From Corallium rubrum (taxonomy: Eukaryota > Cnidaria > Anthozoa > Scleralcyonacea > Coralliidae): a DNA stretch of 64,000 nt. The stretch covers positions 3,240,099 to 3,304,098 of the forward strand of contig OZ036000.1 in the NCBI GenBank assembly GCA_964035015.1, read 5' to 3'. The notes beneath the pieces are model-generated. The model did no database searches, was not told where the DNA came from, and saw only the letters and a program-made list of their open reading frames with translations. The position numbers were made by a program, and so were the translations under genes. This document shows positions 35,659-41,600 of this stretch, piece after piece; the stretch's first letter is position 1; each line of letters begins with the position of its first letter.

Positions 35659-38600
35659 TTACGGAAGAATAACATAACGTACTATTTTACCACCTCGAAC
35701 TTCCTTCAGTTTGCCACAGTGGCGAAGAATATTCAGCGTTGATTGACCACTTTTGTCTAATTTAAACGTCGAATATTCTTTGAGATCTTTGTCGATAAAG
35801 AAAAAACATCCTGTTGTAAAAAAAGAACGAAGAAAGGGCTCTGGTTGGATAAAAAATAATAACTGTTTGAAAATTAGAAATTTAAGTGATTGGTTAATTA
35901 AGTTAACCTACCTTTGGTTTCTGCAGTTTCTTGTTCTTTGAAATCCTAAAAATATACGTGTAAGAACTATATATATATATATATATATATATATATATAT
36001 ATATATATATATATATATATATATATATATATATACATTACGTGAAACTTTGCTGGGTATAAACTAAACTAACTTTATTTATGCTAGATAACCCTATCAG
36101 TCATATCTAGACTGTTCTCTCTAGAGGTTCAGTAAGGACCATCCCTCATGCATTGGTCCAGTGTTACTACAGAAGTCAACCAGAGGAAACTAAAGTAACT
36201 TTATTTATAATGGATAACTCTATCAGTCATATCTAAACTGTTCTCTCTAGAGGTTCAGTAAGGACCATCCCTCATTGGTCCAGTGTTACTACAGGAGGAA
36301 ACCAGAGTAAACTAAACTAACTTTATTTATGCTAGATAACCCTATCAGTCATATCTAGACTGTTCTCCCTAGAGGTCCAGTAAGGACCATCCCTCATTGG
36401 TCCAGTGTTACTACAGAAGTCAACCAGAGGAAACTAAAGTAACTTTATTTATAATGGATAACTCTACCAGTCATATCTAAACTGTTCTCTCTAGAGGTTC
36501 AGTAAGGACCATCCCTCATTGGTCCAGTGTTACTACAGGAGGAAACCAGAGTAAACTAAACTAACTTAGTTTATACAGGATAACTCTATCAGTCATATCT
36601 ATATATCGACTGTTCTCTCTAGTGGTCCAGTAAGGACAATCCCGGATTTCACCTGTGGTGTTTGGTAGAGTCAAACTATTTGAAGCACTCTTCTCGCACG
36701 CGACCAAGGTAAAATTTTAATGGATACTGCACTGAACAAGAACCGAACTCGGGTCACAAAGATGAAATATAAAAAAACTGAAATTTCAGCTCATAAAAAA
36801 GAAGAGTGCTGTTTAGGCAGTATTTTGGATAGAGCAAAGTGAAAAGGTGGTAAACTGCTGAGGTATTAAGTAATGATACTCTGCAATGACGTTTCGAGCG
36901 AAGCCCTAAGTCACATTTTCCTCTGATGAACATAGAGATCCTATATAAATACTAGAGGGGGCATCCTGTCTTAATTTCAGTCAACCGCGGGTAACCAATT
37001 GAACGCCGTCATCTTGGGTTTTTTTGGAGGCAAACATTAGGCGCGTTGGTTGGCAAAGGACTGGGTCTAGTACATTTGCGAACCAATAGACGAGTTTCAG
37101 GGTGTTGCGTGCGCATCGTTTTGGAAAGAAATTGGCGGGCTCCCCACAAAGTAAGGCATGGCAAACAGACTTGCTAGCGAGCCAGCAACAGCAGAATTAC
37201 AATGTTTTATATCCAGAAACTGTATCTACACTTTGTTTATTTTAAACAGTATGTTTACTTTGAGTGGAGCTTGCCAGTTTTTTTGAAAAATGATGCGCGC
37301 GCAACACCCTGAAACTCGCCTATTGCCAATCTCGTTCCCAGAGCCAAAGCGGCCGGGCATATTTGACCAATTGCTTGACTGAAATATCATAGGTAATGGA
37401 GGCTGCCATGTGGTTACCAAATTTTCCCGCCAATGCCCCCTCTAGTATTTATATCTCTATGCTGACGAAGGGCTCCACAGCCTCCGATTGAAGCGTCAGT
37501 ATTTCATTACTAAAAATCTCCAGTCGGTAGTTTACCACTTTTTCACTTTGCTCTTAAAATTCAGTTTCTAGTTGACTCAATGCATTCCTTCAGATTTACA
37601 TCTTACCCTGTATTTTCTCATGATATGTTCACTCATGCCAGCTCTTGGTGTACCAAGAATCTTATACTTGGCTGCAAGTACTTTGTGAATCTGATCGATG
37701 GCTGAGTTGACTTGTGGGTAGGTAAGACGACCTTTTAAATACCTATAGTCATGATCCACAGTTGAAAAAATAATTACTTGATATTATACCGTCGTGCGTA
37801 CATGTTTGTAAAAGTTGCTGGTCTATATTTAGTGTAGACTGTCTTGAGAAAGAAAGTTGCCTTGGTGGTGATGACTGACGTTTTGACGGCTTTAGAAGCA
37901 GACATCCACAGAGTCATTAAGTGAAGTGTTTTCTGTCAGGTTCATGGTCTATATTCATTTGTCTGGTTCTTTACGTCATGTGTACTGTAGAAGTTGCAGT
38001 ATATGTGCGGGTGTTGTGATCACGTGTGCACGGAAGTCTATTGGTCAGTCTATTCTTGTCGGTATTGTCTGTTGGTTTGTTCAAAACAAATCTATTGTTT
38101 GTTTGTTTGTTTGTTTGTTTGTTTTTGTTTGTTTGTTTGTTTGTTTGTTTGTTTGTTTGTTTGTTTGTTTGTTTGTTTGTTCGTTCCTATCACGTTATGC
38201 GATTTTTTTGTAATGTGCTAGTTGTGGTTGTAATCGACTTATGTCCAGTTATCTTTCAGTTCTTCCAACTTTCCAGTGTTATAAGACGTCCTGCTATAAA
38301 GTCATTGTTTGTATAGTTAGTGTCTTACTAACTATCTAACTTCTCACTCCTCCTCTTTTAAATTTTTCCCGCTTGTTTTTTTAGCTTTTAATCTTTCCTT
38401 TTCTTTTACGTCCTTAATCTATTCTTTTCTATTACTACTACTTACTTTGTTTACTTACCTCATCTGTTGTGTTAGATACTCCATTTCAAAATAAGGCACA
38501 CTGCCAATACTCCGACATACATGTATCTCTCACTCCGCCTATCTTATGTTTTCTTCCACTTATATTTTACGTTTTTAATCTATTCTTTTCTATTACTGCA

Positions 38601-41600
38601 CTTACTTTGGCACTCCTTCAAGTTCTTGTTGTTATGATATTCCATTTTACGGTATTAACCACACAACCAACACTCCGACATATCTCTCACTCTGCCTATC
38701 TTATATTTTCTTCCACTTATATTTTACGTTTTTAATCAATTCTTTTCCATTACTGCACTTACTTTGGCCCTCCTTCAAGTTCTTGTTGTTATGATATTCC
38801 ATTTTACGGTATTAACCACACAACCAACACTCCGACATATCTCTCACTCTGCCTATCTTATATTTTCTTCCACTTATATTTTACGTTTTTAATCTATTCT
38901 TTTCTATTATTGTATACTTACTTAGGCACTCCTTCAAATTCTTCTGTTGTTAGATATTCCATCTTACGGTAAGCCACACTGCCAGCAGCACTCCGACATA
39001 TTTCTCACTTCGCCTATCTTATATTTTCTTCCACTTATATTTTACGTTTTTAATCTACTCTTTTCTATTACTGCACTTACTTTGGCACTCCTTCAAATTC
39101 TTCTGTGGTTAGATATTCCATTTTACGGTAAGCCACACTGCCAGCACTTTTCTGTTGTGTTTTTTTCGATGTTTGTGCTGCAGATGGTTCTTCATTTCTT
39201 TCCTTGAGAATTTTTGTTGAATCAACACTGGCCATGAAAGTTGAACAAACAGCATTTTGATAGTTTTGTGCACTTATTAATGAATAATTTTCACTTCTAT
39301 TTTATGACAAGTTCTGATGTCTTAAGGACATGGTTTTATATTAAGTTGTAACTTTTTTTTGTTCAAATAAATGGTCCTAATATACAAAGTGAAACATTTA
39401 TAGCAGACATACACTCAAAATAAAATACACTGTTTTATCTAACCTTTTCTTGCCAGGAAGATGCTGTGGTAAATTGGAAGCTATATGTTCTGATCTTTGA
39501 TGAAACACTTTAAGAGTTTCTTTTAGAATCTGCAAAATAAAATATCACATCAATAAAACAATGAAGTGATATTTATATATATTTAGGTGACCTATAGGAA
39601 TACAATCCTATAGGCAATCAATCTATAGATTTCTAAGTTGCTATGAAATGCTTATACTAGGCAATTGGGTTGTTTTCGGCACATTTTAAAAACACCACGA
39701 TACCAAAAATTAAAAACCACAATATATCTTCTTTGTTTGCTTACTGAGAGAGGGAAGAAAAGAAGGCTCTGTCGTGTTTGTGTTTCAGGCTTTGTCCTAC
39801 TGTAGGTTTGGGACAAAGTAACCATTCTTGTTTGCACAATACTTTTAGCTATGCAACTGTCAGTATATATATATATATATATATATATATAGTCGAAATA
39901 TAGTAAGGTTAGATATACTGCCGAAACAGAGAACGTAGGAGTCTAATGTTTCAAGCGAAGGCCCTTCGTCAGAGAGAAACGTGAAACACTCGAAACGTTA
40001 GACTCCTACATTCTCTGTTTCGGCAGTATATCTAACATTACTATATTTCGATTGTTGTTTCTACACTGCCTACGCAGCACGCTACTTTTATTACACTATA
40101 TATGTATAGTATAATTTAAGTAGGCTTACCTCAAAATGTTGAGTGTTGCAACTGTCAGTTTCACACGGGGTGATCTTCAGGTAACTCCTACCCACATGAA
40201 ACTGACAGTTGCAACACTCAACATTTTGAGGTAAGCCTACTTAAACCATACTATATTCACTATATATATATATATATATATATATATATATATATATATA
40301 TATATATATATATATATATAAGTGAGTTTTGGTTCATGAAATGTTAGAGAGTGCTCAATACCATATAGATAGAGCAAAATATAAAGCATGAAGTATAGTT
40401 ACCTTAAAATCTTTGCTACCAGAGGTTTCACCTTAAATGGCATCATCAGGCCTGATGATCCCGTTTAGGGTGAAACCTCTGGTAGCAAAGACTTTAAGGT
40501 AACTATACTTCATGCTTTATATATATATATATATATATATATATATATATATATATATATATATATGTGTGTGTGTGTATATATATATGTATATATATAT
40601 ATATAAAGCATGAAATATAGTTACCTTAAAGTCTTTGCTACCAGAGGTTTCACCCTAAACGGGATCATCAGGCCTGATGATGCCATTTAGGGTGAAACCT
40701 CTGGTAGCAAAGATTTTAAGGTAACTATACTTCATGCTTTATATTTGCTCTATCTATATGGTATTGAGCACTCTCTAACATTTCATGAACCAAATCTCAC
40801 TTATATATATATATATATATATATATATATATATATATATATATATATATATATATATATATATATATATATATATATATATATATATATATATATATAT
40901 AAAAGGCTTCTAGGACAGCGTCGGCCACGGTTGAAATCCAAATATTACCAGGGTTAAGTCATGTTGGCCTGAAAAACAGAGAAAAATCTTCTCGACGTTT
41001 TGAGGGCCTTTGCTCGAAACATCGAGAAGATTTTTCTCTGTTTTTCAGGCCAATGTGACTTAACCCTGGTAATATTATATATATACTGTATATATATATA
41101 TATATATATTATATATATATATAAAATGTACAATGTATAAATAAGTCAATCACAAAACTTTTTTTAAAAACTTTACTTAATACTGATAGGTTCCAAACGT
41201 TTCAGGGCAAGCCCCTTTATCAAGGTCTCATTGGACGTTTTGTGATTGACTTATAAATGTTTGGCTTCAGAGGAGAAGGGAGGTTGGTGATATACCGTAA
41301 ATATAGCCTAAATCCGTCAGAATGGCTGTATTTTCGACACTTTTGCCGCGAATATAAATAGCTACTTCGTTTCACTATTAATAGTTCATAACCATCGACT
41401 GTTTGTTTTAATAACAATATTCAATAACATTTACGACTCTTTTTTATCTTCTCCATTACAATACCCACCTCTGCCTTCTGTAGTAACTCCTTCTGGTCAG
41501 AGAGATATTCTTTAAACACGCTCAAAGTCTCTTCAATTTCGCTCACTTCGTTATGAATAGACCGCAACGTCTCAACTGCGCCATCAGTTGTTTCTGTGTA

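What the first reader, a model, noticed from the sequence alone, without database searches (positions are those of the whole stretch)
38395..39227. SKA1 exon 4 heads a tandem array of its own 3' end; one extra copy is still spliceable and in frame
Five units of about 160 bp share the exon 4 segment RKMEYLTTEEFEGVPK plus the GTAAGT donor. The neighbouring copy at 38920-38985 differs from the functional exon in this segment only at synonymous sites (AAA/AAG, ACC/ACA, CCA/CCT) and keeps the donor. A GGCAG just 5' of it would join exon 3 in the correct phase (AG|T GTG GCT TAC), giving a SKA1 isoform without the linker. The other copies are frameshifted. So the array may create a shorter alternative exon in a kinetochore protein.
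Basis: partly seen in the sequence, partly recalled or inferred. Interest (0 to 1): 0.72.

Follow-up and report, generated by a model that had tools for sequence, protein, structure and literature searches.

The report
Intronic repeat copied from SKA1 exon
The end of one coding piece of a chromosome-segregation gene has been copied several times into the neighbouring intron; one copy could in principle be spliced in, but nothing seen in the sequence shows that it is, so it looks like ordinary intron repeat growth.

Summary
The minus strand carries a predicted SKA1 gene (7 exons, 254 aa, Pfam E=2.1e-66). Intron 4 begins with four further copies of a ~157-bp unit: the last 68 nt of exon 4, its GTAAGT donor and 88 nt of intron. 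The nearest copy (57-nt pseudo-exon 38978-38922) keeps frame, phase, an AG and a donor, and differs from exon 4 at three sites, all synonymous. Its use as an exon is not supported. Its coding part has diverged no less than its intron part (3/68 vs 6/88, p=0.73). Its acceptor scores like the real ones but lacks their pyrimidine runs and AG-free stretch. In-frame pseudo-exons of that score occur in 15 of 90 control segments. Human Ska1 without its loop localises poorly to kinetochores (PMC3923297 passages). No RNA data or sister species were available.

The parts
35659..41759 (-). SKA1 gene, predicted coding span, 7 exons, 254 aa
   Evidence: exons 41759-41675, 41593-41469, 39529-39444, 39227-39081, 37742-37607, 35945-35912, 35810-35659, six GT-AG introns, 765 nt open; Pfam PF07160 E=2.1e-66; PDB 4ca0 E=3e-34, 4c9y E=3.9e-34, 2lyc E=6.5e-10, 4aj5 E=0.032
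39081..39227 (-). SKA1 exon 4 (147 nt, phase 2-2): most of the loop plus the start of the microtubule-binding domain
38993..39148 (-). Array unit U1: last 68 nt of exon 4, donor GTAAGT, 88 nt of intron 4
38832..38992 (-). Array unit U2, nearest intronic copy
   Evidence: 3/68 coding-part and 6/88 intron-part substitutions from U1
38922..38978 (-). Pseudo-exon in U2, 57 nt, phase 2-2, VAYRKMEYLTTEEFEGVPK
38675..38831 (-). Array unit U3, frameshifted, AG lost
38512..38674 (-). Array unit U4, frameshifted, AG lost
38395..38511 (-). Array unit U5, most diverged; holds an open 42-nt in-phase frame 38500-38459 before the best of the 11 donors scored; lower end judged by eye

Best explanation
This is a local tandem-repeat expansion that happened to take in the 3' end of SKA1 exon 4 with its donor and the first 88 nt of intron 4. 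An old duplication left the diverged distal copy U5; later slippage or unequal crossing-over added U2-U4. The copies are intron sequence. U2 is still intact because it is young or was recently re-copied from U1, not because it is shown to be selected. Normal splicing is expected to join the first donor (39080) to exon 5. Shown: the gene model, the array, the divergences and the frames. Inferred: the order and mechanism of duplication, and that U2 is normally skipped.
For: Array and unit alignment. U1-U2 coding part 3/68 vs intron part 6/88, Fisher p=0.73. Coding changes on the U2 lineage: 3 at the two higher gap penalties, 2 at the two lower ones; chance of all being synonymous 0.05-0.08 for two, 0.010-0.024 for three. 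Intron changes on the U2 lineage: 2 plus 1 ambiguous of 88; at rates of 2/88 to 4/88, 1.0-2.0 nonsynonymous changes are expected, P(0)=0.14-0.38. U2 acceptor: pyrimidine run score 2 and nearest upstream AG at 12 nt, against 5-18 and 21-62 nt in the six predicted SKA1 acceptors. U3 and U4 decayed. Tandem arrays are common in this window, one of them in SKA1 intron 5. Pseudo-exons of equal score and frame in 15 of 90 control segments (segments were not cleared of real exons, so this may overstate the chance rate).
Against: All three U1-U2 coding differences are synonymous; if the whole U1-U2 intron divergence is taken as the rate, P of no nonsynonymous change is 0.053. By the recalled matrix the U2 acceptor (2.47) scores as well as the predicted exon 4 (2.25) and exon 5 (1.59) acceptors, ranks 7th of 121 AGs in intron 4 and lies at the 85th percentile of 3683 minus-strand AGs, like exon 4's (84th). 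U2 is the only candidate in intron 4 that reaches its own thresholds. Splicing exon 4 to U2 would need a 102-nt intron, close to two introns of this gene (81 and 101 nt; coordinates).
Confidence: 0.85

Rival explanations
1. U2 replaces exon 4 in some transcripts, giving a 224-aa SKA1 without most of the loop.
For: Phase, frame, AG and donor are intact; acceptor score like the predicted real ones; all differences synonymous.
Against: It needs exon 4 to be skipped while an acceptor with hardly any pyrimidine run is used. Pfam score falls from 224.6 to 204.8 bits and the match splits in two. Human Ska1 with the loop replaced by GSSG shows no or weak kinetochore localisation in bulk and a two-fold delay of alignment and anaphase, though it binds microtubules in vitro (PMC3923297 passages). 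No clear constraint signal.
Confidence: 0.04
2. U2 is included in addition to exon 4, giving a 273-aa SKA1 with 19 extra residues that repeat the start of the microtubule-binding domain.
Against: Same acceptor context; no transcript data.
Confidence: 0.06
3. The array acts only as a set of extra donor sites: use of any of them would read through the first donor into an immediate TAA after VPK, giving a transcript for decay or a SKA1 without microtubule-binding domain.
For: Five further GTAAGT donors lie downstream of the first within 38380-39080; translation shows VPK followed directly by a stop.
Against: The first donor is adequate (score 7.74) and nothing shows use of the others.
Confidence: 0.05

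Closest known systems
Tandem exon duplication with mutually exclusive or optional splicing (PMC9013439, PMC9741552; passages)
   Same: Exon-like copy beside the parent exon, same phase, donor kept.
   Different: Only the last 68 nt of the exon are copied, without the native acceptor; the copy encodes the identical peptide, so it adds no new sequence; no expression or conservation shown.
Intronic minisatellite-like tandem arrays
   Same: Head-to-tail units of one period, some copies decayed, other arrays in the same window.
   Different: The unit happens to include coding sequence and a splice donor.
Human Ska1 (PDB 4ca0, 4c9y, 4aj5)
   Same: Same domain order; strong match over the microtubule-binding domain, weak over the core (4aj5 E=0.032).
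   Different: Nothing special seen in the protein itself; the loop did not align to the solved chains, which do not cover it.

Membership tests
SKA1 (Pfam PF07160) | Full-length match to the SKA1 profile in an open gene model | tested here: met
   gene model; E=2.1e-66, profile 1-243 of 243
Tandem duplicated exon (alternative exon) | Copy adjacent to and homologous with an exon | tested here: met
   (3' part of the exon only)
Tandem duplicated exon (alternative exon) | Copy has both splice sites and correct phase | tested here: inconclusive
   Donor and phase intact; AG present with a fair matrix score but hardly any pyrimidine run and an upstream AG at 12 nt
Tandem duplicated exon (alternative exon) | Copy under purifying selection | tested here: inconclusive
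   3/68 vs 6/88, p=0.73; 2-3 changes, too few to decide
Tandem duplicated exon (alternative exon) | Expression of the copy in transcripts | not testable with these tools
Tandem duplicated exon (alternative exon) | Conservation in related species | not testable with these tools
   By their descriptions the collections hold prokaryotes, viruses, plasmids and metagenomes; metagenome scans were capped at 0; one viral-contig scan found no relative; the genome search own unanswered
Intronic tandem-repeat array | Head-to-tail units of near-constant period with decaying copies | tested here: met

The most novel reading that the evidence does not exclude
A partial exon duplication by repeat expansion has made a new in-frame optional exon in a kinetochore protein, so that this organism makes a SKA1 with a shortened or duplicated junction between coiled-coil core and microtubule-binding domain, an early stage of exon birth from a minisatellite.
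Probability: 0.08. Interest if true: 0.45.

Novelty: new member of a known kind. Interest (0 to 1): 0.2.

Why it matters
If the copy were used it would show an exon arising from a repeat array that captured a donor and a coding tail, in a gene where the loop matters for kinetochore localisation. As it stands it is a tidy example of how an intron repeat can contain exon-like sequence that could mislead gene prediction.

Tried and rejected
Selection on U2: tested by coding/intron divergence and by synonymous counts; neither shown nor excluded. Two alignments (and at the default gap penalty) suggested that U2 is a mosaic, coding part like U1 and intron part like U3 (U2-U3 13/67 vs 4/88, p=0.004, one of ten pairs compared); at the two lower gap penalties this became 8/66 vs 4/88, p=0.127, so I do not rely on it. 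The polarity of the ACC/ACA site changes with the alignment in the same way. I expected the U2 acceptor to score clearly worse than the real ones; by the matrix it does not, only by pyrimidine run and AG distance. Competing-RNA-structure model of exclusive exons: one short palindrome was the only inverted repeat of 12 nt or more found in 37743-39443; no folding was done. Literature: 0 papers held both 'SKA1' and 'exon duplication'; 0 held the six minisatellite and cryptic-exon terms together; 3 held exon duplication, tandem repeat, intron and pseudoexon, all on dystrophin by title; 10 held the SKA1 isoform terms, 8 seen as a listing, none on this by title. Listings only for (14 papers; 15 of 34). 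Passages only were seen of PMC3923297, PMC9013439 and PMC9741552. The AG-free-zone argument rests on general knowledge and a listing of 8 of 18 papers, none read.

Full report
What is there. The minus strand holds a predicted SKA1 gene. I built a seven-exon model by eye with six GT-AG introns: 254 aa, one open frame. Pfam SKA1 matches over its whole profile (E=2.1e-66). In the PDB four sequences match: the human Ska1 microtubule-binding domain (4ca0, E=3e-34; 4c9y, E=3.9e-34), a homolog (2lyc, E=6.5e-10) and, weakly, the core (4aj5, E=0.032). Exon 4 (39227-39081) encodes most of the loop between the two and the first residues of the domain, RKMEYLTTEEFEGVPK; the next exon continues with YLKGRLTY.

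The array. Tandem Repeats Finder reports period 157, 3.8 copies, 91% matches, score 976. Aligning by unit gives U1 (last 68 nt of exon 4, donor, 88 nt of intron) and four downstream copies, U2-U5. Substitutions among U1-U4 range from 1.4% to 19.4% by pair and part, and from 35% to 47% between U5 and the rest. U3 and U4 share a lost AG and frameshifting indels. U2 alone keeps the full peptide. The array itself is no chance match, but the window is rich in tandem repeats (47 TRF rows at score 80 or more, overlapping rows included), among them a 122-bp array in SKA1 intron 5.

Is U2 an exon? In principle it could be. The 57-nt pseudo-exon 38978-38922 is phase 2-2, so it could replace exon 4 (224 aa) or be added to it (273 aa, with VAYRKMEYLTTEEFEGVP twice), both in frame.

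Splice signals. With recalled vertebrate matrices the U2 donor scores 6.28 (six SKA1 donors 6.14-10.35) and its acceptor 2.47 (six SKA1 acceptors 1.43-7.56), so neither excludes use; the acceptor ranks 7th of 121 AGs in intron 4. But the 45 nt before the U2 acceptor have a pyrimidine run score of 2 (SKA1 acceptors 5-18) and the nearest upstream AG is 12 nt away (SKA1 acceptors 21-62): worst of these seven on both. The 'real' acceptors are those of my model, not of transcripts. In intron 4 only U2 passes its own thresholds with an open in-phase frame; of 90 control segments of equal length from both strands of the window, 15 have at least one such candidate, real exons not being removed from the controls. 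U5 offers a second open in-phase frame of 42 nt with a weak acceptor (-1.23) and the best of the 11 donors scored (11.62).

Selection. U1 and U2 differ at 3 of 57 coding sites, all synonymous; under random mutation three of three has a chance of 0.010-0.024 and two of two 0.05-0.08, by transition bias. Which applies depends on the alignment: three changes on the U2 lineage at the two higher gap penalties, two at the two lower ones, the third then falling on exon 4, which is under constraint anyway. The direct comparison with the intron part of the same unit shows no significant slowing (3/68 vs 6/88, p=0.73). The U2 lineage has 2 intron changes plus 1 ambiguous; at 2/88 to 4/88 only 1.0-2.0 nonsynonymous changes would be expected (P of none 0.14-0.38). 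If the whole U1-U2 intron divergence is used instead, P is 0.053. So constraint is neither shown nor excluded; youth is enough to explain the pattern.

Function. In human cells Ska1 with residues 92-132 replaced by GSSG binds microtubules in vitro about as well as wild type, but in bulk shows no or weak kinetochore localisation and delays alignment and anaphase two-fold (PMC3923297, passages seen). A U2-for-exon-4 isoform would lack 30 residues of the corresponding region and, by analogy, would be partly defective. This argues against a useful isoform of that kind but not against low-level use, and it does not touch the isoform that holds both.

Known kinds. Tandem exon duplications are common: PMC9013439 (passages) cites about 10% of animal genes and reports unannotated copies, some of them expressed, more so with higher identity to the parent exon, which leaves room for use of a young copy such as U2. 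PMC9741552 (passages) says that established mutually exclusive pairs are mostly ancient. The present copy is partial and identical in peptide, so it fits a by-product of repeat expansion better than such a pair.

Limits. No RNA data, no related animal genome, and the own-genome search did not complete. The species is not identified.

Noticed in passing
36060-36643: A second tandem array (122-bp unit, 4.7 copies, 88% matches) in SKA1 intron 5.
   Followed up: no
39054, 38893, 38736, 38579, 38392 (minus strand): Five AATAAA/ATTAAA matches in intron 4, one in each of U1-U4 and one beyond; with the stop right after exon 4's donor early polyadenylation would give a SKA1 ending at VPK. Not tested further.
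   Followed up: no
39864-40901: Hairpin-like inverted repeats beside long TA runs in SKA1 intron 2 (seen by eye); two are related (160 nt at 91%). They look like small TA-targeting transposons (recalled likeness, not tested).
   Followed up: no
e.g. 28576-29394, 41919-42310, 51794-52318, 61586-61876: Long microsatellites of 4-bp units, giving long repetitive open frames on both strands.
   Followed up: no
5749-6804; 13914-14570; 23099-24079; 55072-55470: Of 8 other open frames given to Pfam, 4 matched: rhodopsin-type GPCR, reprolysin-type metalloprotease, AAA ATPase, sodium/calcium exchanger; 4 had no match.
   Followed up: partly
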